This document shows, one piece after another, positions 703 to 56,805 of a stretch of DNA of 64,000 nt (positions are counted from its first letter, which is position 1; each line of letters begins with the position of its first letter). This DNA comes from Candidatus Binatia bacterium (GTDB lineage Bacteria; Desulfobacterota; Binatia; UBA12015), in NCBI GenBank assembly GCA_029243485.1, contig JAQWRY010000073.1, positions 62,001-126,000 on the forward strand, read 5' to 3'. The notes beneath the pieces are model-generated. The model was not told where the DNA came from, ran no database searches, and saw only the letters and a list, made by a program, of their open reading frames with translations. The translations under genes were made by a program, and so were the position numbers.

Positions 703-737
703 TTGACTCGCATCGACGGGAATCCTAGCGAACCCGG
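703..737 (+). promoter_or_regulatory. Putative leaderless promoter for the FUN14 gene
   Basis: TTGACT at 703-708, a 17-nt spacer, TAGCGA at 726-731, then exactly 6 nt to the ATG at 738. No Shine-Dalgarno sequence precedes the ATG. This geometry would put the transcription start at or next to the start codon. The same spacing recurs upstream of 26644 and 56806. Confidence 0.5.
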
Positions 738-1061
738 ATGGAAGAGAAGGGGAACATCCTGCTCGGGCCGGTGGGCGGGCTCGGGTTTGGTGGCGTTGTC
801 GGTCTCGCGGTGGGGTACACCGCGAAGAAGATCGGCAAACTCGTCCTGCTGGCGATCGGCGCCGTGTTCATTCTCCTACAGGCGCTTGCCTATACCGAGT
901 TGATCGACATCGACTGGGGTGCGGTCGAAGGCGCGGCGACGAACGCCTGGGAGACCTCGGACGGTACGCTCGCGGATCGGGCGTGGCAGGTGGTGACGAA
1001 CAACCTGCCGTTCGGCGGTGGGTTCGTTGCGGGATTTGCCCTCGGCTTCAAGATGGGATGA
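738..1061 (+). CDS. FUN14-family small membrane protein
   Basis: 107 residues. A glycine-rich N-terminus (GPVGGLGFGGVVGLAVGY) runs into a hydrophobic helix at about residues 36-52, and the C-terminus ends in GGGFVAGFALGFKMG. The GFxxGFxxGxK pattern at both ends is typical of the FUN14 family, whose bacterial members have no settled function (the eukaryotic FUNDC1 proteins are mitochondrial outer-membrane mitophagy receptors). It is followed after 9 nt by a polytopic membrane protein and then another membrane-anchored protein, so the three probably form one transcript. Family call is fairly secure; function unknown. Confidence 0.7.
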   Translation: MEEKGNILLGPVGGLGFGGVVGLAVGYTAKKIGKLVLLAIGAVFILLQALAYTELIDIDWGAVEGAATNAWETSDGTLADRAWQVVTNNLPFGGGFVAGFALGFKMG

Positions 1062-1070
1062 CGTGAAGTC

Positions 1071-1958
1071 GTGACGGCGACGGACTTCTTAGCGGTTGCC
1101 GAAGAGGGACGGCCCGCGCTCGTCGGTCCCAAGATCGACGGGCTGCGAAAGTTTCTGCTCCTGTTCGGGGCTGCGCGCAGTTGGCTGTGGCTGATCTTCA
1201 ACGCGAACATGGACGTGGGGTTGCTCGTGATCGCGGCGCTGCTGCTCACGGCCTGCGCGACTTTGGCTTGGGTGCCCCGCTGGGCGCATGTGGCCCCTCG
1301 GATCGCCGTACCTCTGTTGTTCGTGGAGTTGGTCGGGAACTTTCCCTTCGCGGACAATCACTTCGTCCTGGAGCTGTTGGTGGTTTCGCTTCTCGCACTC
1401 GTCGGGCGCGACGGAGACGGGGAGTCCGCGGTTCTGCAGGGGATCCTGTGGGTCACTGCGATCGTGCTGTTTCAGACGGGGCTACAGAAGGTCCTGCACG
1501 GCCAGTACTTCGGCGGCGAGTTTCTGGCGTTCATGGTCGGTCGCGGCGATCGATTCGGCGATGTGTTCGGTTGGATGCTCTCGCCCGAGGAGGTCGTACG
1601 CCTCGCGGCGCATGACCCTCTCCGTTCGGGGGAGGGGCCATATCGGGTCGAGTCCACTAAATTCGTGCTCGCCTCGAACGCGGTCTACGTCGCGGAGATG
1701 ATCCTGGCGCCTTTGCTGGTTTGGAAGCGTACGCGCACGGTCGCGGCGATCGTGGCTCTCGCGTTCGTAGTCGTGATCCAGACGGGCGCCCGGGAGATCG
1801 GCTTCGCGCTGGTGTTCGTGAACCTCTTGTTGCTGTTCACACCGAGCGACCTCATCCGGAAGCTCGTACCGGTCTTCGGGATCTTCCTGCTGTGGGTGGT
1901 GCTGGCGGCCGCGGGCTTCTTGCCCGGCGCCGCGTGGATCGAGTCGGGGTACATGTGA
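1071..1958 (+). CDS. Polytopic membrane protein of unknown function
   Basis: 295 residues beginning with GTG 9 nt after the FUN14 gene. Several hydrophobic helices are visible (about residues 25-40, 45-65, 75-95, 105-135 and four near the C-terminus, 210-290). The layout is loosely like HTTM/DoxX-type membrane proteins, but I see no diagnostic motif and do not assign a function. A conserved-looking loop with GQYFGGEFLAFM lies near residues 143-154. Its TGA overlaps the ATG of the next gene, indicating translational coupling. Confidence 0.6.
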   Translation: MTATDFLAVAEEGRPALVGPKIDGLRKFLLLFGAARSWLWLIFNANMDVGLLVIAALLLTACATLAWVPRWAHVAPRIAVPLLFVELVGNFPFADNHFVLELLVVSLLALVGRDGDGESAVLQGILWVTAIVLFQTGLQKVLHGQYFGGEFLAFMVGRGDRFGDVFGWMLSPEEVVRLAAHDPLRSGEGPYRVESTKFVLASNAVYVAEMILAPLLVWKRTRTVAAIVALAFVVVIQTGAREIGFALVFVNLLLLFTPSDLIRKLVPVFGIFLLWVVLAAAGFLPGAAWIESGYM

Positions 1959-2464
1959 TGGCGGCCCGCCGGAAATCGCCCGGGCCCCCGGCGCCCGTCG
2001 CCGGCTGGAAGGTCGCCGTCGTTCTGGCGGTCATCGCCTTCGTCGCGGTTTGGCCGCTGGTGCATCGGGGTCTCGTCGCGCTGTACGACGTGAACCCTTG
2101 GAAACTCGGAGGCTGGGCGATGTACACGACGGCTACGCCCCCGGTCCTCGTGGTCGCCTTCGAGCCTCGGGGAGACGGTGGCGTGCCGCTCGATCGGCGC
2201 CAGTTCCCGGCGTACGTCCAGCAGGCGCTCGGACAATTTGAGATGCGCCGGCACGTCCTCGGTAATCTCCACCGACCCGATGCGTTTGCTTCGCTGGTGC
2301 TGCAGGCTCGTCCGGATCTGGAGCGCGTCGTCGTCCTCGTCCAGCGGATGGCTCTCGACCCGTCCACTGCTCGGATGTCGGCTCGCACGATGCACTACAC
2401 GTATGGCGCGGAGGGCTTGCTCGCGGAACAGGCGGTTGCGGCGGCCGAGTTGGCGGGGTCGTGA
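1958..2464 (+). CDS. Membrane-anchored protein of unknown function
   Basis: 168 residues from the ATG that overlaps the previous stop (TGATG). One N-terminal hydrophobic helix (about residues 15-35, VAVVLAVIAFVAVWPLV) is followed by a soluble domain of about 130 residues with a WKLGGWAMYTT motif. No recognised family. The coupling to the polytopic protein at 1071-1958 suggests the two act together, perhaps as a two-subunit membrane complex; that is inference from gene order only. Confidence 0.6.
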   Translation: MAARRKSPGPPAPVAGWKVAVVLAVIAFVAVWPLVHRGLVALYDVNPWKLGGWAMYTTATPPVLVVAFEPRGDGGVPLDRRQFPAYVQQALGQFEMRRHVLGNLHRPDAFASLVLQARPDLERVVVLVQRMALDPSTARMSARTMHYTYGAEGLLAEQAVAAAELAGS

Positions 2465-2509
2465 GAATGAGCCGCGCGTGGTTCCCCGACGCGTGGTGGC
2501 GAGGCCTCC

Positions 2510-2659
2510 ATGAAGACCGCTTGGGCCGACCTGCTCGGCATCGACGTGCCCATCGTACTTCCGGGGATGAGCTGGATCTCGAAGCCGGGTCTGGTGGCGC
2601 CCGTATGTGAGGCGGGTGGACTCGGAATTCTCGCCGCGGGCGGCTTCGCGGTCAGCTGA
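2510..2659 (+). pseudogene. Nitronate monooxygenase N-terminal remnant
   Basis: A 49-codon ORF begins with ATG at 2510 and stops at 2657-2659. It reads LLGIDVPIVLPGMSWISKP, then EAGGLGILAAGGF. This is the beginning of the nitronate monooxygenase / 2-nitropropane dioxygenase TIM barrel (consensus: LGIxxPIxxxPMxxxxxPxLxAAVSxAGGLGxLG). The family is normally 320-380 residues, so over 85% is missing, and the downstream neighbour starts 1 nt later on the other strand. Best read as a truncated gene. Confidence 0.6.
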
Positions 2660-2660
2660 T

Positions 2661-5600: not shown

Positions 5601-5936
5601 GACACCCGGGAGATCGGCCAGCAGTCCGAGCCACAGAGGTACGAGGAACGCGGCGGCGCACCATAACGTGAGAGTGAGGGCGCGGCCGTGGTCGCCGCCG
5701 GCGACCCGTCGTCCGATGAAGTACGTGCTCGCGGCGAGCAGGCCGGAGTTCACGAGGAAGACGAGCGGAAGTTGCTCGACGCCCACGCGTTTTAGGAAGA
5801 GCGTCTCCGCTGCGTTGGTGAGCGAAACGGTGGCCCAGCCTACCAGGAACAGCGAAAGGCCGCCCCACAGGACGATCGGCCGCTCGGAGGCGGTTCCGTT
5901 CGGAGGTCCGGCGGTAGGTGCTGTGCCGTCTGGCAT
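2661..5936 (-). CDS. Nucleotide-transporter-like MFS / HEAT-repeat / cyclic-nucleotide-binding fusion protein
   Basis: 1091 residues. Residues 20-430 form about 12 hydrophobic helices like those of ATP/ADP-carrier (Npt/Tlc) or MFS proteins. Residues 440-930 are helical repeats of the HEAT type, rich in Ala/Leu/Asp pairs. Residues 940-1075 are a cyclic-nucleotide-binding domain: the phosphate-binding cassette reads FFGEMAILDGETRSATCTA, with the glutamate and arginine that bind cNMP present. No cyclase or kinase is adjacent. A cNMP-controlled membrane transporter is the natural inference; the transported solute cannot be read. It is the largest gene in the window and is transcribed alone. The start ATG at 5936 precedes a short Pro/Gly-rich cytosolic lead. 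Confidence 0.75.
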   Translation of the reverse strand: MPDGTAPTAGPPNGTASERPIVLWGGLSLFLVGWATVSLTNAAETLFLKRVGVEQLPLVFLVNSGLLAASTYFIGRRVAGGDHGRALTLTLWCAAAFLVPLWLGLLADLPGVLAVLVLAAKQIQALALLVFWIAMGGWVDGRQAKRLVPPMMAGGTLGVAFGSFASGSLGTQLGIHALILIAAGALALGALATSALRRKTVTRIEWPRRSRRNEDDTRPSFTSLWRDSGLFRLLATGALLAGTLAPVLYYEFSVAADAATRGMDGEQELLQLYGNFRGWMNVAILALQLGGTSWLFRQFGVPRAALLAPAVYMLGFIGFATVGGLSIAIVAMAAASLQDKALGEPAERTLATLFPETSRPTVAALLDGMLKRGGGVIGNLLVLGTIAASLEAMLPRIAVPFAFLWLGAGIALARAYPSLLLEAASQTRFGRGEAPDADLLDARTTRLLEASLRDPDPDRCAAACELALEAPPGIAAEVTAEALRAAPADNVPILLDTISRLLQAGTLSPSEAHGASSAMLGAVTERADLGADEKARLILLASAVARISDAKTRDTLSTLESDEGTPAAVRLAAQLALRADDADALLREAVASGTAEFRHVALESLRTTLVAPRAADTVDKTSWRARLDLVVALLGDDEERPHAANALADVAARNGAAVDHLTTRFLEHQSDPDPAVRAALLRFLGFTGRTDYGRWAVARLSSDDAGEVEAAQESLRALGPHGIDVILEAFHCDGRHTREALLPVLRDIPVNAATLHALVDDELEGIRRVLDLKHALAGATTSGLVRQRLTERVDEGTRAALSLFAALFQDERIAELGPLLERAHSGRERAVLLEAFEALLPAGQANALLTLLDDGRRAQQPRPTADRTAERDAALLQALADEDSLTRAFVAATLEHSELNRLGGVPEIHPSEPAYPLAPIRAISPCTDTPADQEEVSPMLSGVEIVLHLRSLALFERLSTRELTELASIVREVDHSANTRIVHEGDFDDCMYLIVSGKVQITRSGITLGELGPRDFFGEMAILDGETRSATCTAISKIRLLRIDRPDLLRVMDGRPGIAISICQTLSRRVRELNDNLRDLRQTTSAASGAG

Positions 5937-6107
5937 GCAGGGGACGTTATCACCGCAGGGCCAGAGGCAAAGCCCGGCTCCGGCCCGCTTCTCTTAAGTT
6001 TTCGTAATGTGCCCGAAAGCCTCCGGTAAGGGATCGGTCGCTACCATGTTCTCTGAAACCGCCCCGACCTCGAGTAGGCCGCGGCCGAGAGAGCAAGGAA
6101 TATCGAG

Positions 6108-8424: not shown

Positions 8425-8530
8425 GGTGCTCTCCTGTAGTGGGATGGCCTTCAGCATGGCTTTCGCGATCGTCGCGGGCAAGGGCGGCGGCCGCGTCTCC
8501 TCGGTGCGCACATCGTGCTACTCTGACCCG

Positions 8531-9715
8531 ATGTCGTCTGGACGTTGGGTGCTCGCGGCTGCCTGTGGGGCGCTGTTGCTTCTCCTCGGAATCTGGCTCT
8601 CGCCTTCGGGCGAGACGGTCGAATACGCGACGACACCAGCGGAGCGGGGGCCGATCGTCGCCGAGGTCACGGCGACCGGGCGCGTCGAGCCGCGCCAGTC
8701 GGTCGAAGTGGGCACGTACGTTTCCGGGCCGATCCTCGAGGTCGACGTCGACTTCAACACGAAGGTCCGCGCGGGCCAGCGTCTGGCGCGCATCGATCCC
8801 CGGACCTTCGAAGGGAAGGTGGCGCACGCGGTGGCGGATCTCACGCTCGCCGAGGCTCGCGTCGAGAGAGCGGTCGCGGCGCTGGAGCTCGAGCAATCGA
8901 AGTTGCGTCGCTCGAAATCCCTCGCAGGGAAGGCCGTCGTCTCGTCCGAGGAACTCGAGATCGCTCGCTCGAACGAGCGGCAGGCTGAGGCCGAGGTCTC
9001 CGTCGCACGGGCGGAGGTCGAGCGCGCGCGTGCTACCCTCGCCGAGGCCGAGGTGAACCTGAGCTACGCGGACATCGTCTCGCCGATCGACGGGATCGTG
9101 ATTTCGCGCTCCGTTGACGTCGGCCAAACGGTGGCGGCGACGTTCCAGACGCCGGTGCTGTTCGTCATCGCGAACGATCTCGAACAGATGCAGGTTCTCG
9201 CGTTCGTGAACGAGGCAGACGTGGGGCGAGTGCGCGAGGGGCAGGTCGCCACGTTCACCGTGGATGCGTTCCCGGGCCGACCCTTCGAAGCCGTCGTGCG
9301 TCAGGTACGCCACGCGTCCGAAGGGCCGGAAACACAAGAGCCGGTCATCAGCTATGTCGTCACATACGACGTGGTTCTCGACGTCGAGAACTTAGGGGGC
9401 CTCTTGCGCCCGGGCATGACGGCGAACGTACGCGTCGTGACGGCGGAGGCGGACGACGTCCTGAAGGTGCCGACCGCGGCGCTGCGCTTCCGCCCGCCCG
9501 GTTCAAAGGTGGCTCGGACGAGCGGTGACGACGGGGCCGTGTATCGCCTCGAGTCCGGGGAGCCGGTGGCCGTCTCGGTGACCCTCGGTCTGTCGGACGA
9601 CCAGCTGACGGCGGTCTCCGGTGGGGGCCTGGCCGCCGGGGACGACGTGGTGACGCGCATGCAGGTGACGTCGGACGAGGGCGGCTGGGCGCTCTTCGGT
9701 CGCCGGCGCCGTTGA
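8531..9715 (+). CDS. Periplasmic adaptor subunit of a MacAB-type exporter
   Basis: 394 residues. An N-terminal membrane anchor (WVLAAACGALLLLLGIWL) is followed by a lipoyl half-motif (ATGRVEPRQSVEVGTYVSG), a helical hairpin (about 100-165), the second lipoyl half (DIVSPIDGIVISRSVDVGQTV) and beta-barrel domains. This is the HlyD/MacA family of adaptors, which bridge an inner-membrane ABC transporter to an outer-membrane channel. The ATG overlaps nothing upstream; a TACTCT hexamer ends 6 nt before it, compatible with leaderless initiation. Its TGA overlaps the next gene's ATG. No TolC-like gene is visible. Confidence 0.85.
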   Translation: MSSGRWVLAAACGALLLLLGIWLSPSGETVEYATTPAERGPIVAEVTATGRVEPRQSVEVGTYVSGPILEVDVDFNTKVRAGQRLARIDPRTFEGKVAHAVADLTLAEARVERAVAALELEQSKLRRSKSLAGKAVVSSEELEIARSNERQAEAEVSVARAEVERARATLAEAEVNLSYADIVSPIDGIVISRSVDVGQTVAATFQTPVLFVIANDLEQMQVLAFVNEADVGRVREGQVATFTVDAFPGRPFEAVVRQVRHASEGPETQEPVISYVVTYDVVLDVENLGGLLRPGMTANVRVVTAEADDVLKVPTAALRFRPPGSKVARTSGDDGAVYRLESGEPVAVSVTLGLSDDQLTAVSGGGLAAGDDVVTRMQVTSDEGGWALFGRRRR

Positions 9716-13546: not shown

Positions 13547-13597
13547 GACGGGGGGCGTAGGAGAGCGACTCTGGGCGCGGACTGGTAGGACCCCGGA

Positions 13598-14920
13598 GTG
13601 TCCGGCGTTGCGCCCGAAGGGGATCCTGCGGAGGACCGGAGCTTTCGCCCCGGCTGGATCGGGTATTTTCATTTTCTCGGCGAGCCGCCAGCGCTCACGC
13701 GGAGGCAGTGGAAGGTCCTCGCGCTCGTTTCGACCGCCTCCTTCTTCGACCAGTACGACGCGGGCCTGTTCTCGCTTGCGCTCAAGCAGATTCAAGTCGA
13801 TCTGGCGATGCCCGAGGGGAGCCTCGGTTTCTTCTCATCGATCGTCATGTTCGGGTCGGTGTTGGCGATCCTGCTGACCTGGGCCGCCGATCGGTTCGGA
13901 CGGCGCCGGCTGCTCATGATTACGATCGTCGCGTACACGCTTCTGACCGGGGCGACCGCGTTCTCTCCGAACGCAGAGACCTTCGTCGCGCTGCAGTTCC
14001 TGTCGCGGATGTTCATTACGGCGGAGTACGCGCTCGCGATCGTCGTGATCGGCGAGGAGCTGGACGACGACGCGCGGGGCTGGGGAATCGGAGCGCTCGC
14101 GGCGCTCTCTGCTTGCGGGCACGGGCTGGCGTACGCGCTGTTCGCGTTCATCGACATTCTTCCGATGGGCTGGAGAACTCTGTACCTGGTGGGCCTCATT
14201 CCGCTCGCGATGGTCGCCTGGATGCGCCGGGACATGGAGGAGACCCCGTACTTCGAGCGACTGGAAGCCGGTCGGGGAGGACAGGGCGCTCCGCGGGTAG
14301 GTCTGCTCGCGCCGCTGCGGGGCCTTGTGCGGCAGTATCCCGCGCGGTTTGCCGCGATCGGCTCGATCTTCCTACTGCTCGGCCTGGCGGAGCGGGCGGC
14401 GTTCTTTTTCGCCCCGAAATTCCTGCAGGACGAGCACGGCTTCTCGCCGGCGGTCGTCGGGATGATGGGCTTGTTCGGAGGCGCGTTGGGGGTCTTCGCG
14501 AACACGCTCGCCGGACGCTGGAGCGACCGGTTCGGACGCAAGCGCACCGCTCTGGTCTTCCTCACTGTGATGCCTATTGCCGTGATCGTGTTCTACAACG
14601 CCTGGTGGGGCTTCCTGCCTCTGCTCTGGGTGGCGCTGCTGTTCTTCGCGATGGGCGGCGGCGTGCTGTTGTCGATGTACGGCGTGGAGCTGTTCCCGAC
14701 CTCGTATCGCTCGACCGCCGCCGGGGCCCGGGCGACGCTGTCCACCCTGGGGGCTGTGCTTGGGCTTGGGCTCGAGTCACTCCTCTACGGGGTCTTCGGC
14801 TCGCACTGGACGGCGATCTCGGTCCTCGCGAGCCTGGCGCTTCTCGCGCCACTGATCGTATGGGTGGCGTTTCCCGAAACGACCGGGCGAAGTCTCGACG
14901 AGATTTCGCCCGAGCGTTGA
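13598..14920 (+). CDS. MFS transporter, sugar-porter/metabolite:H+ symporter type
   Basis: 440 residues with 12 predicted helices. Family signatures: DRFGRRRLLM after helix 2, the matching RWSDRFGRKRTA between helices 8 and 9, and the C-terminal PETTGRSLDEIS that ends sugar-porter-type MFS proteins. DQYDAG in helix 1 is typical of the aromatic-acid/metabolite subgroup. Starts at GTG 13598; TAGGAC ends 6 nt upstream, so it may be leaderless. Substrate unknown. Convergent with the SnoaL-like gene 9 nt downstream. Confidence 0.85.
   Translation: MSGVAPEGDPAEDRSFRPGWIGYFHFLGEPPALTRRQWKVLALVSTASFFDQYDAGLFSLALKQIQVDLAMPEGSLGFFSSIVMFGSVLAILLTWAADRFGRRRLLMITIVAYTLLTGATAFSPNAETFVALQFLSRMFITAEYALAIVVIGEELDDDARGWGIGALAALSACGHGLAYALFAFIDILPMGWRTLYLVGLIPLAMVAWMRRDMEETPYFERLEAGRGGQGAPRVGLLAPLRGLVRQYPARFAAIGSIFLLLGLAERAAFFFAPKFLQDEHGFSPAVVGMMGLFGGALGVFANTLAGRWSDRFGRKRTALVFLTVMPIAVIVFYNAWWGFLPLLWVALLFFAMGGGVLLSMYGVELFPTSYRSTAAGARATLSTLGAVLGLGLESLLYGVFGSHWTAISVLASLALLAPLIVWVAFPETTGRSLDEISPER
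14884..14912. terminator. Long hairpin inside the 3' end of the MFS gene
   Basis: A 14-bp stem (14884-14897 against 14899-14912, one G-T wobble, single-base centre) lies within the codons for PETTGRSLDEISPE, just before the stop. The next gene converges 9 nt later, so the element could serve as a shared terminator from both sides. Confidence 0.4.
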
Positions 14921-16797: not shown

Positions 16798-16844
16798 CGA
16801 TCAACCGCTGGGCCCTGTCAACACTCGTTGGCTAGGATGCTCGC

Positions 16845-17696
16845 ATGAGTGATTCGAAGGTTCTGACCGAGGCCCAGCGCGATGCCTACGACCGCGACGG
16901 CTTCCTGTCGATTCCCGGGTTGGTGGACGAGGCTTGGCTCGCCCGGTTGCGCGAGACGACGGCCGGGTTCGTCGAGCACAGTCGGACGCTCACGGAGTCC
17001 AACGTCGTTTTCGATCTCGAGCCGAGCCACACGGCGGACAGCCCGCGGCTGCGCCGGCTCGTCTCACCGGTCGATCTGGACGAGACATTCTGGGAATTCG
17101 CGTCGGCCTCGGTGATCACGGACCTCGTCGAAGATCTGCTCGGCCCGGACCTGAAGTTCCATCACGGCAAGCTGAACTTCAAAGCGGCCTGCGGCGGTGA
17201 AGAGGTAAAGTGGCACCAGGATATCCAGTTCTGGCCGCACACGAACTACGGGCCCCTCACGGTCGGCGTTTTTCTCACGGATGTGAAGGAGAACATGGGC
17301 AACGTCGGGTTCATCCCGGGGAGCCACCGTGGGGACTTGTTCGATCAGTACGAGGGAGACGACTGGGTCGGATGCCTGTCGAACGGGGATGTCGCCAAGG
17401 TGGATGTGGGAAGCGCGGTCTACCCGATCGGGCCGGCGGGCAGCGTGACCGTTCACAATTGTCGGACGGTGCACGGCTCCGCCCCGAATCGCTCGGAGCA
17501 GGAGCGCCCACTGCTTCTCCAGACCTACGCCCCGGCCGACGCGTTCACCTACACCGACTTGGTGAAGCGCAGTCCGCACGGCGACATGCTGATCCGCGGC
17601 CGGCCGGCCCGGTGGGCGCGTCACGACCCGCGTCCGTGTCAGGTGGGGCCGTCGAAGGTGCGAACGATCTTCGAGGTCCAGCAGCGCGAGACCTGA
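16845..17696 (+). CDS. Phytanoyl-CoA dioxygenase family protein (Fe(II)/2-oxoglutarate)
   Basis: 283 residues. The facial triad is clear: H124 and D126 in WHQDIQFWP and H210 in TVHGSAPNRS; R221 follows as the 2-oxoglutarate-binding arginine. The double-stranded beta-helix core spans about 90-235. Family members hydroxylate branched-chain acyl-CoAs, small alcohols or secondary metabolites. Divergent from the carotenoid oxygenase over 103 nt, suggesting co-regulation. Its substrate cannot be inferred from the sequence. No Shine-Dalgarno is visible; TAGGAT ends 6 nt before the ATG. Confidence 0.9.
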   Translation: MSDSKVLTEAQRDAYDRDGFLSIPGLVDEAWLARLRETTAGFVEHSRTLTESNVVFDLEPSHTADSPRLRRLVSPVDLDETFWEFASASVITDLVEDLLGPDLKFHHGKLNFKAACGGEEVKWHQDIQFWPHTNYGPLTVGVFLTDVKENMGNVGFIPGSHRGDLFDQYEGDDWVGCLSNGDVAKVDVGSAVYPIGPAGSVTVHNCRTVHGSAPNRSEQERPLLLQTYAPADAFTYTDLVKRSPHGDMLIRGRPARWARHDPRPCQVGPSKVRTIFEVQQRET

Positions 17697-19465: not shown

Positions 19466-20119
19466 CTAGCCCTTGTCGACGTGCTCCATGAGCAGGTGAG
19501 CGAACCAGCGTCGGAAGCGTGCGTCGACCTGGCTGTGCTCGGGGGTTCCGGCGTTCCAGATTCCGCCGGTGAGTGAGTCGCCGAGGACGGCGGCAGCAGC
19601 CAGTCGGGCGATGAAGAACGAGTCCTCGCGAGTCGGTGGTTTGAGCCCGTTCGTCTCGGCGTGTTCGCAGCGCCGGCGGTGCAGCAGGTCGGCGACGTGG
19701 TCGAGCAGGGCGCGGGCTTCGGTGCGGGACTCGGAGGAGAGCGCGCGCCAGGCGATCAGGCGCGCGGTCCCGCTGTCGCCGAGAGTCGAGAAGACGTGCT
19801 CGATGATGTGCTCGGCGGAGCTCTCGTTCGCGGGCGCTGCCGACAGCGCATCGACCAGGTCTCCCACCAGCCGCTCCGTGATCCGAAGCCCCAACGCACG
19901 GGTGAGGCCGTCGCGGCTCTCGAAGTGGTGCAGGATAGTAGGGTGCGAGATGCCCACGTCTGCCGCTATGTCCTGAAGTCGGATGGCCTCGGGCCCGCCG
20001 GCCTTCAGGCGACCCTCGGCGGCATCGAGGATCAGTGTGCGTGCCTCGGCCGCGGTCCGGCGCACCCGCCGTGTCGTCGGCTCGGTTCGCGTCGTCTTTT
20101 TCTTCACCGGGGGCGCCAT
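19466..20119 (-). CDS. TetR-family transcriptional regulator
   Basis: 217 residues. A basic leader (VKKKTTRTEPTTRRVRR) precedes the TetR_N HTH (about 24-68): LILDAAEGRLKAGGPEAIRLQDIAADVGISHPTILHHF. The C-terminal ligand-binding domain is unassigned. It is divergent from the Coq4-family gene with 94 nt between the starts, and a 10-nt palindrome sits on the putative -10 of the coq4 promoter, so it most likely represses coq4 and itself. Confidence 0.9.
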   Translation of the reverse strand: MAPPVKKKTTRTEPTTRRVRRTAAEARTLILDAAEGRLKAGGPEAIRLQDIAADVGISHPTILHHFESRDGLTRALGLRITERLVGDLVDALSAAPANESSAEHIIEHVFSTLGDSGTARLIAWRALSSESRTEARALLDHVADLLHRRRCEHAETNGLKPPTREDSFFIARLAAAAVLGDSLTGGIWNAGTPEHSQVDARFRRWFAHLLMEHVDKG

Positions 20120-20125
20120 GGGTTA

Positions 20126-20158
20126 TTGACAGGACTGTAGATATGGTGTTGTATACAA
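20126..20158 (+). promoter_or_regulatory. coq4-like promoter with overlapping TetR-type operator
   Basis: TTGACA at 20126-20131, a 17-nt spacer, and TTGTAT at 20149-20154. The -10 is the left part of a perfect 10-nt palindrome, TTGTATACAA (20149-20158). TGTAGAT also occurs twice as a direct repeat flanking it (near 20136 and 20162). An A+T-rich island in a GC-rich genome, it is the best operator candidate for the adjacent TetR protein. Confidence 0.55.
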
Positions 20159-20213
20159 TCTTGTAGATTAGATGTGTGACCGAGGGAAGTCCCTCGGGGG
20201 AAGGATACAAACC

Positions 20214-23892: not shown

Positions 23893-24822
23893 TCAGCTAC
23901 CGGCCGAGGCAGTGCGGCGGCGGGCGCGCCACTGCGCGCGCTCGAGGTCTTCTTCCTGCGAAAGGAAGTTGAAGATCCGTCGGATGTAGCGGAAAGCGCC
24001 GCCGTATCGGGCAAACTCGGCGGGGTGGATCAGCACCGCCTCGAGCGGCATCGGGTCGTCCTCGGTCTTCGCGACCCGCAGGATGCAGGCGTAGCAGGGC
24101 GCTTGTATGCGTCCGCGATCGATCATGTATGTGAGGTACGCACCGGCCTGGACCTTGTGGGACACACCGATCGACTTTGAGGTCTTCCAGTCGACCAGGA
24201 GCGGCACGCGCGAGCCGGGCCGCTCTTTGACCTCGTACTTCCGGTTCCAGGTCGACCTGGCCAAGAGGCGATCGAGGTCGGCGGTGCCGAACGCGTCTGC
24301 GGTGCCGGCCGACCAGATGCGCTCGTCCTCACTCCAGAGACGTTCTTCGATGCCTTCGGGGTCGGGTTCGAACGCGATGGCTTCGAGCCAATCCTTCGCG
24401 AGGCCGGCCGCGCGCGTGACGAGCGGCTCGGGCTCCGGCTCGTCGGTTCGATCGAGACCGGGGAGGGCGGCCTTCTCGCGGAGATGGTCTTCGAGAAGCG
24501 CGTGCGTGGCTGTTCCGAAGTCCGCGGCCACCTGCTTCTGGACGTCGCACGCGAGGTCGCGGCCGAGGCGCTTCTTCACGTCTCGGAGAACGGCCTTCGT
24601 CCGCACTTCGTCGAGATGCTTGCCGAGCACCGCGGCGACTTCTTCGAGGACCTTTTGGCGCTCGAGCTTGGCGGCCCACGTGGTGAGAAAGGGCTTGCCG
24701 ATGCCTCGATCGATCACGGTGGTCGTGCGGGGCATGGGGCGGCGCTCCCCGTCGAGGACGTAGAAGTCTGCATCGGCGTGGGGGAGCTTGGGCTTACGGG
24801 GGCCGTTGCTGGCTTCGCTCAT
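23893..24822 (-). CDS. Stand-alone RecB-type PD-(D/E)XK nuclease
   Basis: 309 residues. The catalytic core is complete: G103-T-A-T-H107-x3-E111 (motif I), E-rich region near 161, G173-T-A-D176 (motif II), D211-W-K213 (motif III), and Q225-x3-Y229. This order is that of RecB/AddB/Cas4-type nucleases, but no helicase domain and no four-cysteine Fe-S cluster are present. It stands alone between a decayed pectate lyase and a divergent subtilase, with no cas genes or phage genes nearby. Likely a DNA exonuclease in repair or defence; phage-type exonucleases share this fold. A TATGGA -10 ends 6 nt before the ATG. Confidence 0.8.
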   Translation of the reverse strand: MSEASNGPRKPKLPHADADFYVLDGERRPMPRTTTVIDRGIGKPFLTTWAAKLERQKVLEEVAAVLGKHLDEVRTKAVLRDVKKRLGRDLACDVQKQVAADFGTATHALLEDHLREKAALPGLDRTDEPEPEPLVTRAAGLAKDWLEAIAFEPDPEGIEERLWSEDERIWSAGTADAFGTADLDRLLARSTWNRKYEVKERPGSRVPLLVDWKTSKSIGVSHKVQAGAYLTYMIDRGRIQAPCYACILRVAKTEDDPMPLEAVLIHPAEFARYGGAFRYIRRIFNFLSQEEDLERAQWRARRRTASAGS

Positions 24823-24828
24823 GGGCGA

Positions 24829-24834
24829 TCCATA
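24829..24834 (-). promoter_or_regulatory. -10 element of the nuclease gene, leaderless spacing
   Basis: On the minus strand TATGGA is followed by 6 nt and then the ATG at 24822. In the same 62-nt gap the plus strand carries CACAAT (24872-24877) 7 nt before the ATG at 24885. No convincing -35 for the minus-strand gene. Confidence 0.35.
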
Positions 24835-26608: not shown

Positions 26609-26643
26609 TTGGCGGGCGGCCTCGCAGATGGCAGGATCTTTCG
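26609..26643 (+). promoter_or_regulatory. Putative leaderless promoter for the lipoprotein hydrolase
   Basis: TTGGCG at 26609-26614, a 17-nt spacer, CAGGAT at 26632-26637, then 6 nt to the ATG at 26644. There is no Shine-Dalgarno. Same geometry as upstream of 738 and 56806. Confidence 0.5.
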
Positions 26644-27762
26644 ATGCTACCGACCGTTCGTCGTGCCCGTGCTTGCCTGATTCTCCTCTTCGCCGTCACA
26701 GTCGTCGCTGGCTGTGGTGACAGTGCGACGACCGGAAGCAGTTCGTCGCCCGGGGGCGCCCCCGTCGCGGCGGCGGATCCCGCGCAGCCGGGGCCGTATC
26801 CCGTCGGCGTCACGCGAATCGAACTGTACGACGAAGCGCGCGATCGCGTCGTCCTCACCGAGATCTGGTACCCTGCCGCCGAATCCGCCCGCGACCAGCC
26901 TCCCGCCCCGGCGACGAGCTACCTCCCGCCGGACCTCGCCTTCCTCGCGGACAACGCGACGATTCCGCTCGTCGCTGTGCGCGACGTTTCGCTGGCTGAC
27001 GATGGGCCGTATCCGCTGATCGCGTTCTCGCACGGTTCCGGCGGGATCCGGTTCCAGAACACGTTCCAGTGCGAGCACCTGGCGAGTCATGGCTTCGTCG
27101 TGATCGCGCCGGATCACCAGGGGAACACGTTCTTCGACAGTTCGGGCACTACGGAGGGGTTGCGGGAGGCGCGACCTCTCGATGTACTTTATCTCCTCGA
27201 TCAGTTCAGCACCTTCACGTCGCAGTCGGGCAATCGATTCGAGGGGTGGATCGATCTCGACAAGGGCTTCGGCGTGACTGGACACTCCCTCGGCGCCTTC
27301 ACCTCAATGGCCGCTGCGAGCATGGACTCACGCGTCGTCGCCTCACTGCCCATGGCTCTCGGTGGGCCGGTGTCCGACACCTACGATGCGGCGACGTTGC
27401 TCATGCTGGCGACCGTCGACAACACGATCGGCCCCGAGGGCAACGCCGCCGTCCGCGCTACGTACGACCTGGTTCCGGGACCGCGGTTCCTCGCAGAATT
27501 GGTTGATGCGGGGCACTTCAGCTTCAGCTTCGCCTGTCAGACCGGACTCGGGATCGGGGATGGCGATGGCTGCGGGACGAGCACGCGGTTCGACGGCTCT
27601 CCGGTGACGTTCATCTCGGACCTGCGGGTCTGGGAGATCGTGAACACCTATTCTGCGGCGCTCTTCGGGCGCTACATCAACGGCATTCAGGAGTATGACG
27701 AATTCCTGAGTTCGACTCTCGACCCGGAGGTGAATCGGTATGTCGCCGACCCGAACCGTTGA
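26644..27762 (+). CDS. Alpha/beta-hydrolase lipoprotein (PAF-acetylhydrolase/dienelactone-hydrolase-like)
   Basis: 372 residues. A lipoprotein signal ends in the lipobox VVAGC with C24 as the lipidated residue, then a Ser/Gly linker. The hydrolase core has HGSGG (oxyanion loop) and GHSLGAFTS (nucleophile elbow); the acid and histidine are expected in the C-terminal half (DAGHFSFSF). The N-terminal strand pattern GPYPVGVTRIELYD...IWYPAAE resembles PAF acetylhydrolase-like proteins. It should hydrolyse short esters or modified lipids at the membrane surface. Confidence 0.82.
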   Translation: MLPTVRRARACLILLFAVTVVAGCGDSATTGSSSSPGGAPVAAADPAQPGPYPVGVTRIELYDEARDRVVLTEIWYPAAESARDQPPAPATSYLPPDLAFLADNATIPLVAVRDVSLADDGPYPLIAFSHGSGGIRFQNTFQCEHLASHGFVVIAPDHQGNTFFDSSGTTEGLREARPLDVLYLLDQFSTFTSQSGNRFEGWIDLDKGFGVTGHSLGAFTSMAAASMDSRVVASLPMALGGPVSDTYDAATLLMLATVDNTIGPEGNAAVRATYDLVPGPRFLAELVDAGHFSFSFACQTGLGIGDGDGCGTSTRFDGSPVTFISDLRVWEIVNTYSAALFGRYINGIQEYDEFLSSTLDPEVNRYVADPNR

Positions 27763-33464: not shown

Positions 33465-33962
33465 CTACGCCTGTTCGACGCGGTTGAGCTCTGGGTCGGC
33501 GCGCTCGGCGTGCTTCTGCGAGAGGAACAGGCGGTAGCGCGCGTAGGTCCTCGGCCGCTTGGCCTCGAGCCAGGTGAAGAACTGTTCCGAGGTGCGGAAG
33601 GAGAACTTCTCTGCCGGCTCGTCCTCAGCGGTGAGCTGCTTCTCGCAGTCGCGCCAGTCGAAGTCTTTGCAGATGGCGGGGCGGTGGTCGTAGATGCCGC
33701 AGAGTCCCTTGTCCGTGAGGTTCTCGCAGCGCGTTTCCATCTGCAGGTACCACGCGCCTTCCCAGTCGATGTAGACCGAGATGCCTGCGTGATAGAGGTA
33801 CCAGGAGATGTGATCGTAGTCCTTCATCGTGGTGGGCTCGTCGATCTGGGTCGCGATGTAGGTGCAGCACTGAGAGCACGAGAAGCACGGATGGCCCGAG
33901 AGCTTCGTGAGCGTGGGAGGAGTCAGAGTCGGCTTCTTCGGGGTGCTGGACCGTTTGCTCAT
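33465..33962 (-). CDS. YkgJ-family cysteine-cluster protein
   Basis: 165 residues from the ATG at 33962. Cysteines lie in the YkgJ/CxxCxxCC pattern: CFSCSQCCTYIAT near the N-terminus, then CENLTDKGLCGIYDHRPAICKDFDWRDCE. The family probably binds a metal (Zn or Fe) cluster; its reaction is not established. The ORF continues upstream to 33998 but that part has no similarity to the family. A promoter-like TTGCTC-N17-TAATCG lies just before the ATG. Monocistronic between two gene-free stretches. Confidence 0.85.
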   Translation of the reverse strand: MSKRSSTPKKPTLTPPTLTKLSGHPCFSCSQCCTYIATQIDEPTTMKDYDHISWYLYHAGISVYIDWEGAWYLQMETRCENLTDKGLCGIYDHRPAICKDFDWRDCEKQLTAEDEPAEKFSFRTSEQFFTWLEAKRPRTYARYRLFLSQKHAERADPELNRVEQA

Positions 33963-33998
33963 ACCCGGGCGATTAAGCCATGCGTGGCAGGGGAGCAA
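33963..33998 (-). promoter_or_regulatory. Putative leaderless promoter of the YkgJ gene
   Basis: On the minus strand TTGCTC (33998-33993), a 17-nt spacer, TAATCG (33975-33970), then 7 nt to the ATG at 33962. No Shine-Dalgarno sequence. Confidence 0.45.
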
Positions 33999-37344: not shown

Positions 37345-37419
37345 TAGTAGCGGGCCTACTATTCCGCATGACGAACCGTGAGAGTTGACACACTCAGAGT
37401 GAATGCTCACACAGTAGGT
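37345..37419 (+). promoter_or_regulatory. Divergent regulatory region of the menaquinone operon
   Basis: Contains TAGTAG-N5-CTACTA (37345-37361), TTGACA at 37385-37390 exactly 35 nt before the merR ATG (37420), and the palindrome CACTC-A-GAGTG (37391-37401) immediately after that -35, in the spacer where MerR proteins bind. GTGAG (37378-37382) and CTCAC (37406-37410) flank it as a wider inverted repeat. The -10 position (37408-37413) reads CACACA, a poor match, as expected for an activator-dependent promoter. Confidence 0.45.
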
Positions 37420-38169
37420 ATGACTTACGGCGTGGAAGAGCTGGCACGCGAGGCGGGGCTGAGCATCGATACGATCCGCTTCTACCAGGCGCAGGGTATT
37501 CTCGACCGACCCAAGCGGGTGGGGCGGAAGGCTTCGTACGGCGAGCGCCATCTCAGTCGGCTGCACCGGATTTGCGATCTAAAAGCGCGCGGGCTGACTC
37601 TCGCAGGGATCAAGCGCGTCGTCGGGCCCGGGAAGTCCCGTTCCGACTCTGCGCTCATCGGAGCCCTTACCGAGGGGCGTGGGGCGCGGCGCTTCGATCG
37701 CGCGGGCCTCGCCAAGGAGACCGGCGTGCCCGAGGCGCTCATCGAAGCGGTGGAACGCTCGGGCCTCGTCGAGCCGCTGCGCGACGGTGGCGGTGCCGCG
37801 TACGACGAAGCCGATGTCGAACTCGCGCGCGCCGCGCTCGCCGTCTTGAAGGAAGGCCTACCCCTGCAGGAGTTGCTCGGGCTGGCAAACGATCACGCGG
37901 GCAACATTCGTGAGATCGCGGATCGCGCTGCATCGCTCTTCGACACGCATGTGCGACACGATGGTTCCGGGGGCCAAGTCGATCCGGAAGAAGTCGTGGA
38001 CGCGTTTCGCCGTCTGCTCCCGGCAGTGACGTCGCTCGTGGCGCATCACTTCCAGAGGACGCTCGTCTGTCGTGCGCTCGAACGTCTCGAGAAACACGGC
38101 GATGCGTCTGGCCTCGAGCAGGCGCTCGAAGCCTCACAGTCCACCCGGTTGGCGATCCGATGGAACTGA
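37420..38169 (+). CDS. MerR-family regulator with two MerR-type winged helices
   Basis: 249 residues from the ATG at 37420. First MerR HTH at 3-68: YGVEELAREAGLSIDTIRFY, wing RKASYGERHLSRLHRICDLKARGLTLAGIK. A second segment at 92-157 has the same order: FDRAGLAKETGVPEALIEAV, wing GGAAYDEADVELARAALAVLKEGLPLQELLGLA. The C-terminal 90 residues are helical, with HVRH and HH motifs that could bind metal or ligand. Its end overlaps the start of menG (ubiE) by 10 nt, so it is the first gene of the menaquinone operon and probably its autoregulator. Confidence 0.8.
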   Translation: MTYGVEELAREAGLSIDTIRFYQAQGILDRPKRVGRKASYGERHLSRLHRICDLKARGLTLAGIKRVVGPGKSRSDSALIGALTEGRGARRFDRAGLAKETGVPEALIEAVERSGLVEPLRDGGGAAYDEADVELARAALAVLKEGLPLQELLGLANDHAGNIREIADRAASLFDTHVRHDGSGGQVDPEEVVDAFRRLLPAVTSLVAHHFQRTLVCRALERLEKHGDASGLEQALEASQSTRLAIRWN

Positions 38170-46100: not shown

Positions 46101-46151
46101 GGGGGGCGGCGTCGGGTGGCGACGGCCCGCCCGCACCGTCATGATGGGGGG

Positions 46152-47519
46152 ATGCCTTCCCCGCGGCTCCGCGCTCTTCCTCTCCTCTCTCTCGGCCTCG
46201 TCGCGGTGGTGCTGGTCTGGGCGGTGCGGCTGCCGGCTGTGACGTGGAAGAGTGCACAGCCTCCTCGTCACGTGATCTTGATCTCGCTCGATACTCTTCG
46301 CGCGGATCACTTGGGGGCCTGGGGGTATGAGGGGGAGACGAGTCCCCGCTTGGACTCTCTGGCGAAGAAGAGCGTGGTTTTCCGACGTGCCGTCGCGCAG
46401 GGCAGCAGCACGATCCCGTCCCACGCGTCGTTGTTCACATCGCAATACGCGTCGGCGGTCATCGCCCCGGGTGCCGGTCTGCTGGATTGGTCCGAAACTC
46501 TCGCGGAGGCGCTCTCGCTTGACGGGTTCGCGACGTGGGGCTTCGTAGATGGTGGGAACGTCCGCAGTAGATTCGGATTCGATCGGGGGTTCGAGCACTA
46601 CGAAGACGATCGCGTCGGAGTGGAGCGTCTGGTGGCGCGCGCGAAAGGTTGGATCACGTCACATCCGACGCCCCGCTTCTTTCTATTTCTGCACACGTAC
46701 GAGATCCACACGCCCTACAAAGCTCCGCCCGAGTACGTGAAGATGTTCGGTACCCCCGAGTTCCGGCCCGGCTTCCATCCGGACACGAAGTACTTCCGCG
46801 AGATCGAAGCGCAAGGCAAGGGTTTGTCGGCCCGCGAGCATCGCGAGGTCGTGGCGCGGTACGACGCGGGCATTCGCTACACGGACGAGCGCATCGGCGG
46901 CTTCCTCGATTGGCTCGACGAGAGGGGGCTCCTCCAAGACTCGCTCGTCGTGGTGGTGTCGGATCACGGCGAGGAGTTCCTCGAGCACGGGAGGCTCGGC
47001 CATCAGCAACTCTATCTCGACCCGAATCTTCGCGTGCCGCTGCTCTTCTATCGTCGCGGGATGCCGGCTCGGGTGATCGACGAAACCGTGGAATTGATCG
47101 ACGTCGTGCCGACCATCCTCGATCTCCTCGAGTTGCCGAATCTCCCCGCGTCGGTGGGCCAGAGTTTGGTGGCGTCCTTCGCGGGCGTACCTCCGCGGGG
47201 CGACCGGATGGCCTACGCGGAGAAGGGCACCATGCCCGGGGCGCAGACCGTGATCACGGACCGCTACCAGCTCCTGGAGGATCGGACGACGAATGAGGTC
47301 CGACTCTACGATCTCCAGGCCGATCCCGAGGCGACGCGCGATGTTCTCGCAGAGCAGCCCGCGGTTGCGGCAGAACTTGCTGCCGCGATGGCAGCGCGAC
47401 GTGAAGCGGCCAGCGAAAGCTGGCATCGACACGAGCGCGAGGCGCGCCGCCAGACCCGGATTGCGCCCATGAAGGACAAAGTGCGTCGCGAACTCGAGGT
47501 GCTCGGGTATCTCGAATAG
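46152..47519 (+). CDS. Membrane-anchored sulfatase-superfamily enzyme with Thr at the nucleophile site
   Basis: 455 residues from the ATG at 46152; an N-terminal helix (LLSLGLVAVVLVWAV) anchors it. Alkaline-phosphatase-fold metal ligands: D47 in ISLDTLRADHLG, the D-H pair in VVVSDHGEEF. The position that holds the formylglycine Cys/Ser in sulfatases (C/S-x-P-S-R) reads T87-I-P-S-H, so it cannot be a classical sulfatase; Thr nucleophiles occur in phosphoglycerol and phosphoethanolamine transferases of this superfamily. CATGAT ends 6 nt before the ATG. It follows menE by 51 nt and may be a separate unit. Confidence 0.75.
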   Translation: MPSPRLRALPLLSLGLVAVVLVWAVRLPAVTWKSAQPPRHVILISLDTLRADHLGAWGYEGETSPRLDSLAKKSVVFRRAVAQGSSTIPSHASLFTSQYASAVIAPGAGLLDWSETLAEALSLDGFATWGFVDGGNVRSRFGFDRGFEHYEDDRVGVERLVARAKGWITSHPTPRFFLFLHTYEIHTPYKAPPEYVKMFGTPEFRPGFHPDTKYFREIEAQGKGLSAREHREVVARYDAGIRYTDERIGGFLDWLDERGLLQDSLVVVVSDHGEEFLEHGRLGHQQLYLDPNLRVPLLFYRRGMPARVIDETVELIDVVPTILDLLELPNLPASVGQSLVASFAGVPPRGDRMAYAEKGTMPGAQTVITDRYQLLEDRTTNEVRLYDLQADPEATRDVLAEQPAVAAELAAAMAARREAASESWHRHEREARRQTRIAPMKDKVRRELEVLGYLE

Positions 47520-52787: not shown

Positions 52788-52832
52788 TCAGAGGTTAGTA
52801 GCGCAGTCGTCTGCGGCATGCCCACCGACGTC

Positions 52833-54037: not shown

Positions 54038-54205
54038 AGTCGCTCCTCAGCTTCTTGGATCGGTCGAATGGATCGGAAACTGGAGCGCGGCCGTCGAACG
54101 CGCGTTCGAGGCGGGTTTGGCGGGGCTCCGACATGGCGATCGCCTTAGGGTAGTTTGCGTTTCCGACGGGTGGGCGGTAGCAGCCCGGCAACCGAGGAGG
54201 TCCAG

Positions 54206-55494: not shown

Positions 55495-55496
55495 AC

Positions 55497-56372
55497 GTGG
55501 ACATCGGAAAGATTGGCATCTGGGCGTTTCTCGACCTCGTTCCTGCCGCGGAGTCGCAAGCGGCGGCGCGAGAGATCGAGGACCTCGGTTTCAAGGCATT
55601 GTGGATCCCCGAGGCGATCGGCCGTGAGGTGTTCACGAGCTCGGCGGTCCTCCTTGCGGGAACCAAGAGCCTCGTCATCGCGACCGGCATCGCGAACGTT
55701 TGGGCGCGTGACGCGATGGCGATGGCCAACGCGCAGCGGACGCTCTGCGAAGCGTACCCCGAGCGGTTTCTTCTCGGCATGGGGGTGAGTCACGCCCCGA
55801 TGGTCTCGACCATCCGAGGGCACAACTACGACAAACCGTTGACCTACATGCGCGGGTATCTCGACGCGATGGATAAATCGATCTTTGCGGGTGCCGCGCC
55901 GGCGAGTGAGCCAAAGCGGATTCTCGCGGCGCTGCATCCCAAAATGCTGAAGCTCGCTAGCGAGCGCTCTTGGGGTTCGCACCCGTACTTCGTGACTCCC
56001 GAACACACGGCGCGGGCGCGAGAGGCCTTGGGTGAGGGCCGTATGCTCGCGCCGGAACAAGCGGTGGTACTGGAGACGGATCCCGACAAGGCGCGCGCGA
56101 TCGCGCGCCAGCACATGGCGATCTACATCGGACTTCCGAACTACCGTCGGAACGTGCTCTCCCTGGGCTTCGAGGAGTCGGACTTCGACAACGGCGGAAG
56201 CGATCGATTGGTCGACGCCATCGTCGCGTGGGGTGACATCGACGTCATCCGACAGCGCGTCCGGGCGCATCAGGACGCCGGCGCCGACCACGTCTGCCTC
56301 CAGGCTCTACCGGAGAACATGGCCGAGTTGCCCCGCGACCAGTGGCGCGCGCTTGCGAAGGGCTTGCTCTAG
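55497..56372 (+). CDS. F420-dependent LLM-class oxidoreductase
   Basis: 291 residues from GTG 55497, preceded by GGGGAG at 6-nt spacing; TTG 55491 is an alternative. Luciferase-like TIM barrel: IGKIGIWAFLDLVPAAESQAAAREIEDLGFKALWIPEA, TGIANVWARDAMAMANAQRTL, ERFLLGMGVSHAPMV, and the C-terminal DAGADHVCLQAL. Short members of this type are F420 enzymes (TIGR03620-like). The use of F420 rather than FMN is inferred from similarity; no F420 synthesis gene is in the window. Confidence 0.85.
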   Translation: MDIGKIGIWAFLDLVPAAESQAAAREIEDLGFKALWIPEAIGREVFTSSAVLLAGTKSLVIATGIANVWARDAMAMANAQRTLCEAYPERFLLGMGVSHAPMVSTIRGHNYDKPLTYMRGYLDAMDKSIFAGAAPASEPKRILAALHPKMLKLASERSWGSHPYFVTPEHTARAREALGEGRMLAPEQAVVLETDPDKARAIARQHMAIYIGLPNYRRNVLSLGFEESDFDNGGSDRLVDAIVAWGDIDVIRQRVRAHQDAGADHVCLQALPENMAELPRDQWRALAKGLL

Positions 56373-56540
56373 CGGGCGTTGAAACGTGGCGTTGCCGGCC
56401 GGAACGGGGTGTTGCGCGCGGGTGCGGCGTCCCGTTTCACGGTGGGCTCGGAGCTCCGGAAGTAAGGGCGGCTCGGGATGGCGTGCGTCTTGCGATCGAG
56501 TCCTCCCGTCGGTGTGTCGTAACCGGTGGGAGGTGGAGCG

Positions 56541-56798
56541 GTGGCGAAACGGGGCGAGGCGGGAGCGGGCGAGGGTGCGGAAGTGGACCTGGACGTCCAG
56601 GCGCTCCTGGAGGAGATGGGACGGGCCGGGCTACGGCCGGCGATGATCGTCTTTCTCGGTGATACGGGTGTGCCGCGCGTCGCCACGCGCGGAGTGGATC
56701 CAGTGGAACTCCTGCGGGATCTCGCCCGCCGCAGTCGGGCGGGCCGCCCGTGTCGCCGGGGCGCCGCCGCTTGGCACCAAGCGAGCTCCGACGTATGA
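56541..56798 (+). CDS. Small hypothetical protein
   Basis: 85 residues from GTG 56541, with GGGAGG 7 nt upstream. Reads DLDVQALLEEMGRAGLRPAMIVFLGDTGVPRVATRGVDPVELLRDLARRSRAGR, a plausible compact alpha/beta fragment; no family known. Its last 30 nt carry the promoter of the next gene, which starts 7 nt after its stop. Coding status uncertain. Confidence 0.35.
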   Translation: MAKRGEAGAGEGAEVDLDVQALLEEMGRAGLRPAMIVFLGDTGVPRVATRGVDPVELLRDLARRSRAGRPCRRGAAAWHQASSDV

Positions 56799-56805
56799 CG
56801 TCGGG
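56771..56805 (+). promoter_or_regulatory. Putative leaderless promoter of the epoxide-hydrolase-like gene
   Basis: TTGGCA at 56771-56776, a 17-nt spacer, TATGAC at 56794-56799, then GTCGGG and the ATG at 56806. No Shine-Dalgarno apart from the weak GGG. The best match to a sigma-70 promoter with leaderless spacing. Confidence 0.55.

What the first reader, a model, noticed from the sequence alone, without database searches (positions are those of the whole stretch)
703..56805. Recurrent leaderless promoter architecture with fixed -35/-10/ATG spacing
Sequence: TTG-type -35 begins exactly 35 nt before ATG, with 17-nt spacer and -10 ending 6 nt before ATG, for genes at 738 (TTGACT/TAGCGA), 26644 (TTGGCG/CAGGAT) and 56806 (TTGGCA/TATGAC). 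At merR (37420) the TTGACA -35 is in the same place but the -10 is poor. YkgJ (33962, minus) fits with one extra nt (TTGCTC/TAATCG). -10-only matches ending 6 nt before the start: 8531 TACTCT, 13598 TAGGAC, 16845 TAGGAT, 46152 CATGAT, 24822 minus TATGGA. None of these has a clear Shine-Dalgarno, while many other starts do (11698, 16741, 8424, 29722, 33078). Established: leaderless mRNAs are common in actinobacteria and Deinococcus and less so in proteobacteria-like lineages. Inference: this organism uses leaderless initiation for a large minority of genes.
Basis: partly seen in the sequence, partly recalled or inferred. Interest (0 to 1): 0.6.

Follow-up and report, generated by a model that had tools for sequence, protein, structure and literature searches.

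The report
Leaderless promoters in a deltaproteobacterium-like genome
In this unnamed, apparently uncultured bacterium roughly one gene in five seems to have its promoter pressed against the start codon, so that the messenger RNA would begin at the start codon itself; this is a known mode of gene expression, here supported by sequence in a little-known lineage.

Summary
In 629 starts from 809 kb of the genome, called without upstream motifs, TANNNT ends 6-9 nt before the start 39 times against 9.3, with 0 of 200 shuffles reaching it. It comes with a TTG -35 at modal spacing 17 (21 against 3.4), lacks Shine-Dalgarno (3 of 39 against 264 of 590), and is the top non-SD motif de novo, GnTAnnnT. 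Same-genus orthologues conserve -10 and -35 above the spacer. In 200-kb samples E. coli, Sinorhizobium and two phylum members show no excess; 250 kb of Deinococcus do. About 20% of starts (19-25%) fit this class. Best explanation: leaderless transcription from sigma-70-type promoters, a known mode already predicted for 8 of 33 delta-proteobacteria (PMC3160421). No transcript end is mapped.

The parts
703..740 (+). TTGACT (703-708), N17, TAGCGA (726-731), N6, ATG 738 (FUN14-family gene)
   Evidence: (P 0.91); TTGACT/TAGCGA kept in G001, TTGACA/TAGCCA in G002, TTTGCA/TAACCT in G004
8519..8533 (+). TGCTACTCT extended -10 (hexamer 8519-8524), N6, ATG 8531 (HlyD-like gene)
   Evidence: (P 0.93); TGCTACCTT-N6-ATG in G003 and TGCTAGACT-N6-GTG in G004, not seen in G014; own finder chose 8444 instead
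13586..13600 (+). TGGTAGGAC -10, N6, GTG 13598 (MFS transporter)
   Evidence: (P 0.66); the hexamer is not conserved in 3 same-genus orthologues (3 of 6 letters each)
16833..16847 (+). TAGGAT -10, N6, ATG 16845 (PhyH family)
   Evidence: (P 0.47, competing SD reading 0.50); no orthologue upstream held
26609..26646 (+). TTGGCG, N17, CAGGAT (26632-26637; TGGCAGGAT extended), N6, ATG 26644
   Evidence: P 0.42; TGACAGGAT-N6-ATG in G001 and TTGGCC-N17-CAGGAT-N6-ATG in G003; not kept in G002, and not seen in nine orthologues of other genera (starts extrapolated)
33960..33998 (-). TTGCTC, N17, TAATCG, N7, ATG 33962 (YkgJ/CxxCxxCC family)
   Evidence: (P 0.64); kept in G001 (both elements) and G002 (TAATCG, TTGCCC)
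37385..37422 (+). TTGACA, then either N17-CACACA-N6 (reader) or N19-CACAGT-N4, ATG 37420 (MerR family)
   Evidence: (P 0.70, best at d=7); block kept nearly whole in G001; G002 has TTGACA-N19-CATTGT-N4; G004 TTGCTC-N16-TAGAGT-N6 (spacings counted by eye); own finder missed this gene
46140..46154 (+). CATGAT, N6, ATG 46152 (sulfatase); probably not a -10
   Evidence: (P 0.16); no orthologue tested
56771..56808 (+). TTGGCA, N17, TATGAC, N6, ATG 56806 (limonene epoxide hydrolase-like)
   Evidence: (P 0.29); both hexamers kept in G001 over a changed spacer; the G003 orthologue has an SD-like GAAGGAG instead; own finder chose 56845
24820..24834 (-). TATGGA, N6, ATG 24822; 17 nt from the divergent start 24840
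   Evidence: P 0.71; TATGGA kept in G001, TATGGG in G002, but the stretch partly overlaps the divergent gene
5934..5949 (-).
   Evidence: (P 0.98, 8.2 bits); no orthologue tested

Best explanation
About one gene in five here, mostly genes well separated from their upstream neighbour, is driven by a housekeeping (sigma-70-type) promoter with an extended -10, GnTAnnnT, and often a TTG -35 at about 17 nt, placed so that the -10 ends 6-9 nt before the ATG/GTG. RNA polymerase then starts at or within about 3 nt of the start codon, the mRNA has no leader and no SD, and ribosomes start on the 5'-terminal AUG/GUG. Shown by sequence: motif, spacing, SD depletion, conservation, no excess in 200-kb samples of four control genomes. 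Inferred: the transcript 5' end, the sigma factor and the leaderless translation.
For: TANNNT at d6-9: 39 against 9.3, p 3e-13; 0 of 200 shuffles. Among patterns with three fixed bases, G.TA (41 against 5.8) and TA...T (31 against 3.6) rank first in the 362 non-SD starts. TTG is the most enriched trinucleotide at the -35 place (21 against 3.8) and spacer 17 the mode. Start calls used coding score and start codon only. Codons 2-16 are as coding-like as in SD genes and the upstream is not. In all 17 same-genus pairs held, conservation peaks at the -10 and the -35, p 0.007, or 0.016 on 13 pairs (pairs are not independent). Whole genomes: TTG-N20-TANNNT-N6-ATG 11 against 1 decoy in G000; 135 against 25 in the 13 genomes of the family. 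Deinococcus 14 against 3.1; E. coli 5 against 9.0; S. meliloti 4 against 3.6; G040 0 against 2.1; G035 3 against 4.6. Cross-fitted share 19-21%; fixed motif at six decoy ranges 0-2.5%.
Against: No transcript 5' end is known. Motifs learned freely at decoy offsets also reach 17-25%, and free fits give 21% in E. coli and 18% in S. meliloti, so only cross-fitted and fixed-motif figures count. 9 of 17 same-genus pairs do not keep the -10 hexamer exactly, 13598 in 0 of 3. Same-class G018 and G019 show no clear share in 200 kb (8% with 0-13, and 0%). In G002 the strict pattern occurs 5 times against 1 decoy but 4 reversed. G040 and G035 are not clean negatives: genome-wide they have 7 against 0 and 18 against 3 reversed.
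Confidence: 0.88

Rival explanations
1. The motif is a real promoter but the true start codon lies further downstream behind an SD, so the mRNA has an ordinary leader and the called start is wrong.
For: Start calling is imperfect: the finder missed merR and placed 8531 and 56806 elsewhere. A downstream ATG/GTG with an SD-like tetramer within 150 nt exists for 9 of 52 genes with P(-10) above 0.8.
Against: The same holds for 30 of 149 SD genes; codons 2-16 have coding periodicity (GC1/2/3 0.67/0.52/0.76 against 0.65/0.47/0.73 in SD genes) while the 45 nt upstream do not. Same-genus orthologues of 738, 56806 and 37420 align from residue 1.
Confidence: 0.05
2. Very short leaders (about 3-5 nt) rather than strictly leaderless mRNAs; translation would still be SD-independent.
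For: The distance spreads over d=6-9 (14, 10, 9, 6), so not every start can fall on the first base of the codon.
Against: d=6 is the mode, sharper still with the -35 (13 of 21), as expected for a start site on the first base of the codon.
Confidence: 0.25
3. Composition artefact: AT-rich patches before genes give TANNNT by chance.
For: In a GC-rich genome any AT-rich patch stands out; A...TA is also raised at d8-10 (4, 5, 7 against 1.9), though it shares the TA of the -10.
Against: Peak locked to position; AT...A (4, 4, 4, 0 at d6-9 against 3.5 each) and TT...A (5, 5, 2, 4 against 4.3 each) show none; 0 of 200 shuffles; conservation.
Confidence: 0.01
4. Most of the reader's ten window sites are chance matches and only the genome-wide trend is real.
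For: 46152 P 0.16, 56806 P 0.29, 26644 P 0.42 and 16845 P 0.47 by motif alone; 13598 not conserved.
Against: 738, 56806, 33962- and 26644 conserve the -10 in at least one sister species while the spacer changes; 8531 keeps TGCTA in G003 and G004.
Confidence: 0.08

Closest known systems
TA-led (leaderless) genes of bacteria, Zheng et al. 2011 (PMC3160421; passages and one section read)
   Same: TANNNT core about 12 bp upstream of the start, weak middle positions in high-GC genomes, share near 20% as in Actinobacteria. Their Table 2 lists 8 of 33 delta-proteobacterial genomes with leaderless genes, 15.8% on average (5.7-20.6).
   Different: They report a TG peak before the box in several low-GC genomes; here a G at that place stands out in a high-GC genome, with a -35, and orthologues were compared promoter by promoter.
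-10 region adjacent to ORFs in Deinococcus-Thermus (PMC12340547; outline and two sections read)
   Same: TANNNT about 6-7 bp before the ORF in nearly a third of D. radiodurans genes, beside an RBS motif in others.
   Different: bS21 is found here but gave no match in the controls Thermus and Deinobacterium; phylogenetically remote; no experiment here.
Leaderless transcription as predicted by GeneMarkS-2, summarised in PMC9581028 (passages read)
   Same: Leaderless and SD-led genes in one genome; 21.6% of bacterial species predicted to use it.
   Different: That program was not run here.

Membership tests
Bacterial leaderless (TA-led) genes | -10-like TANNNT about 10-12 bp upstream of the start, above background | tested here: met
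Bacterial leaderless (TA-led) genes | no Shine-Dalgarno at those starts | tested here: met
   SD-like tetramer in 3 of 39 against 264 of 590
Bacterial leaderless (TA-led) genes | -35 at promoter spacing, i.e. a true promoter | tested here: met
   21 against 3.4; spacer mode 17
Bacterial leaderless (TA-led) genes | genes head their transcription unit | tested here: met
   by a proxy, 40 nt or more to the upstream neighbour: 30 of 39 against 361 of 590
Bacterial leaderless (TA-led) genes | transcript 5' end at the start codon | not testable with these tools
   no RNA data
Bacterial leaderless (TA-led) genes | translation from a 5'-terminal AUG/GUG | not testable with these tools
   no ribosome or protein data
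MerR-type promoter (19-bp spacer) at 37420 | 19-bp spacer with dyad between -35 and -10 (recalled) | tested here: inconclusive
   spacings counted by eye; the G004 relative reads as N16

The most novel reading that the evidence does not exclude
Leaderless expression from extended -10 promoters is an inherited, major second route of initiation (about a fifth of genes) in a whole family and probably its class within a little-known delta-proteobacterial lineage, running beside a complete SD apparatus (IF3, bS21 and a protein with six S1-domain matches), with single genes switching between the two routes between sister species, as 56806 seems to have done in G003.
Probability: 0.6. Interest if true: 0.42.

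Novelty: new member of a known kind. Interest (0 to 1): 0.35.

Why it matters
If true it adds a little-known delta lineage to the bacteria with heavy leaderless use, outside Actinobacteria and Deinococcus-Thermus. In practice, gene callers that expect an SD may misplace starts here, and promoters of about a fifth of genes could be read straight from the genome. Sister species that differ in the route at one gene (56806) would allow the switch between leaderless and SD initiation to be studied directly.

Tried and rejected
De novo EM with a single-base background was captured by CG-rich composition and gave no -10; it was replaced by a position-based pattern scan and a mixture with a second-order background. 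Freely learned motifs at decoy offsets reached 17-25%, so the learned 25% alone was not used. The first conservation count used 6 hand-picked pairs that keep both elements (-10 35/36, -35 27/36, spacer 47/102, upstream 26/90); since that is selected, all 17 same-genus pairs held were counted again. Left out of both counts: orthologues outside the genus (738 in G004; 8531 in G004 and G014; 56806 in G004; 37420 in G004 and G014; 26644 in nine genomes), shown; some support the reading (738, 8531 and 37420 in G004), 26644 and 8531 in G014 do not. The phylum-wide pattern count gave more matches than the reversed pattern in 58 of 59 genomes (all but G056), by my count of its table. No 16S was found; the lineage rests on RpoB only, and no class name is claimed. 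D. gobiensis alone (25 starts) showed no signal (1 against 0.9); the Deinococcus figure pools it with D. deserti. Literature searches: seen as listings except three papers read in part; the pair leaderless + Desulfobacterota listed three papers, none on this by title.
Full report
What was checked. The window lies in an unnamed draft genome, G000 (6.55 Mb, 88 contigs, 97.5% complete). That it is uncultured is inferred from the draft state of it and its relatives. Its RpoB is 75% and 70% identical to two genomes of the same class and at most 66% identical to the named records returned (very near genomes may be left out there). In a quick RpoB tree named Desulfovibrio, Desulfopila and Syntrophales rows fall among rows of its phylum, but so do Myxococcota and Bdellovibrionota rows, and 18 of 61 inner forks are open. 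So it is a deep branch of delta-proteobacterial type; nothing finer is claimed.

Chance. In the window the frame TTG-N20-TA-N10-ATG occurs only at 703 and 56771, 0.11 expected. For the genome, a small gene finder was written that chooses starts by coding score and start codon only, so upstream motifs cannot bias it. On the window and 40 stretches, 809 kb, it called 646 starts, 629 of them with 60 nt upstream. It is imperfect: it missed merR at 37420 and put the starts of 8531 and 56806 elsewhere, which would dilute a signal. TANNNT still peaks at d=6-9 (14, 10, 9, 6 against 2.3 per position), p 3e-13. Dinucleotide shuffles give 8.75, maximum 18, against 39.

What the motif is. A scan of patterns with three fixed bases within seven positions finds the SD first in all 629 starts. 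In the 362 starts without SD it finds G.TA at d10-12 (41 against 5.8) and TA...T at d6-8 (31 against 3.6), together GnTAnnnT, the form of an extended -10. TTG is the most enriched trinucleotide at the -35 place (21 against 3.8). Starts with the strict -10 rarely have an SD-like tetramer (3 of 39 against 264 of 590) and more often lie 40 nt or more from the upstream neighbour (30 of 39 against 361 of 590). Codons 2-16 of genes with P(-10) above 0.8 are as coding-like as those of SD genes and their upstream is not coding, which speaks against wrong start calls.

How many. A three-part mixture (none, -10, SD) gives 25% -10-type starts (bootstrap 20-29%). Fitted on one half and applied to the other it gives 19-21%; the fixed motif at six decoy ranges gives 0-2.5%. 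With the G000 motif fixed: G005 18%, G008 22% (same family), G015 14%, G018 8% (0-13), G019 0% (same class), G040 0%, G035 3% (same phylum), E. coli 6% (0-14), S. meliloti 5% (0-10), Deinococcus 15% (6-23). Fits with a freely learned motif run higher in every set (21% in E. coli, 41% in Deinococcus) except G000, from whose own fit the fixed motif comes, and are not used. Direct counts for the controls agree: Deinococcus 14 against 3.1, E. coli 5 against 9.0, S. meliloti 4 against 3.6, G040 0 against 2.1, G035 3 against 4.6.

Whole genomes. TTG-N20-TANNNT-N6-ATG occurs 11 times in G000 against 1 for a decoy with N16 and 1 for the reversed pattern. Over the 13 genomes of the family, G000-G012, it occurs 135 times against 25 (decoy) and 16 (reversed); over the 8 other genomes of the class 104 against 51 and 42, where two genomes, G013 and G016, have high controls. 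G002 is weak (5 against 1 and 4). G008 and G012 share many identical matches and are not independent. In the phylum sample the pattern exceeds its reversed form in 58 of 59 genomes, including G040 (7 against 0) and G035 (18 against 3). So either the mode reaches further than the 200-kb samples show, or the reversed pattern is a poor control; this was not resolved.

Conservation. The profile of conservation has two peaks, at d5-9 (-10) and d29-33 (-35), with the spacer and the region beyond lower. The -10 hexamer averages 4.76 of 6 against 3.85 for other hexamers, p 0.007; without merR and 24822, 13 pairs, p 0.016; it is kept letter for letter in 8 of 17. The pairs share genes and species, so these p values are rough. 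Best cases: 738 (TTGACT/TAGCGA in G001), 56806 (TTGGCA/TATGAC in G001), 33962 (TAATCG in G001 and G002), 26644 (CAGGAT-N6-ATG in G001 and G003). Counter-cases: 13598 is not kept in 3 of 3 (G001 and G002 have other TA hexamers there, by eye), 26644 is lost in G002 and not seen in nine orthologues of other genera, and in G003 the 56806 orthologue has GAAGGAG before its ATG instead.

Mechanism. With a -10 ending 6-7 nt before the codon, a sigma-70-type polymerase would start on the first base of the ATG/GTG (general knowledge of such promoters), so the mRNA would be leaderless. Whether the true end lies on that base or a few nt before it cannot be told from sequence. The genome also encodes IF3, bS21 and a 596-aa frame with six S1-domain matches; among the 14 control genomes Thermus, Deinobacterium and Corynebacterium gave no bS21 match. 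That is an observation, not an explanation.

Known or new. Bacterial leaderless genes with TANNNT about 12 bp upstream were surveyed in 2011, with 8 of 33 delta-proteobacterial genomes positive at 15.8% on average (PMC3160421); the same arrangement was tested by experiment in Deinococcus (PMC12340547). This finding is therefore a new member of a known kind, well supported by sequence, in a lineage for which the listings of the searches made showed no report.

Noticed in passing
window 24822 (-) / 24840 (+): Divergent start codons only 17 nt apart; the minus gene's TATGGA lies in the gap, so any -35 would lie inside the other gene. TATGGA is kept in G001 and reads TATGGG in G002.
   Followed up: partly
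window 37385-37422: The merR promoter block TTGACACACT...CTCACACAGT is kept almost whole in G001, spacer included, which suggests an operator between -35 and -10.
   Followed up: partly
window 20119-20172: Divergent gene pair 19466-20119 (-) / 20172 (+) with the palindrome TTGTATACAA in the gap, perhaps an operator.
   Followed up: no
L273 upstream of the 56806 orthologue (G003): An SD-like GAAGGAG stands where own genome and G001 have the -10: a possible switch between leaderless and SD initiation.
   Followed up: partly
G003:C1:79973, G004:C20:15915, G005:C18:122148, G007:C239:3299, G009:C213:12668, G011:C27:10765, G000:C86:462062: Very similar promoters TTGTCG...-TAGCGTC..-ATG in four genera of the family; perhaps one orthologous gene, not identified.
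   Followed up: no
G016, (C68, C118, C127, C204, C251): The same 38-nt match occurs five times: a repeated sequence, which inflates the count for that genome.
   Followed up: no
phylum sample: The strict pattern exceeds its reversed form in 58 of 59 genomes, strongly in some (G055 33 against 4, G059 24 against 2, G072 20 against 2); no matched decoy was run.
   Followed up: no
G000:C62:93851-94006: bS21 is present here although the controls Thermus, Deinobacterium and Corynebacterium gave no match.
   Followed up: no
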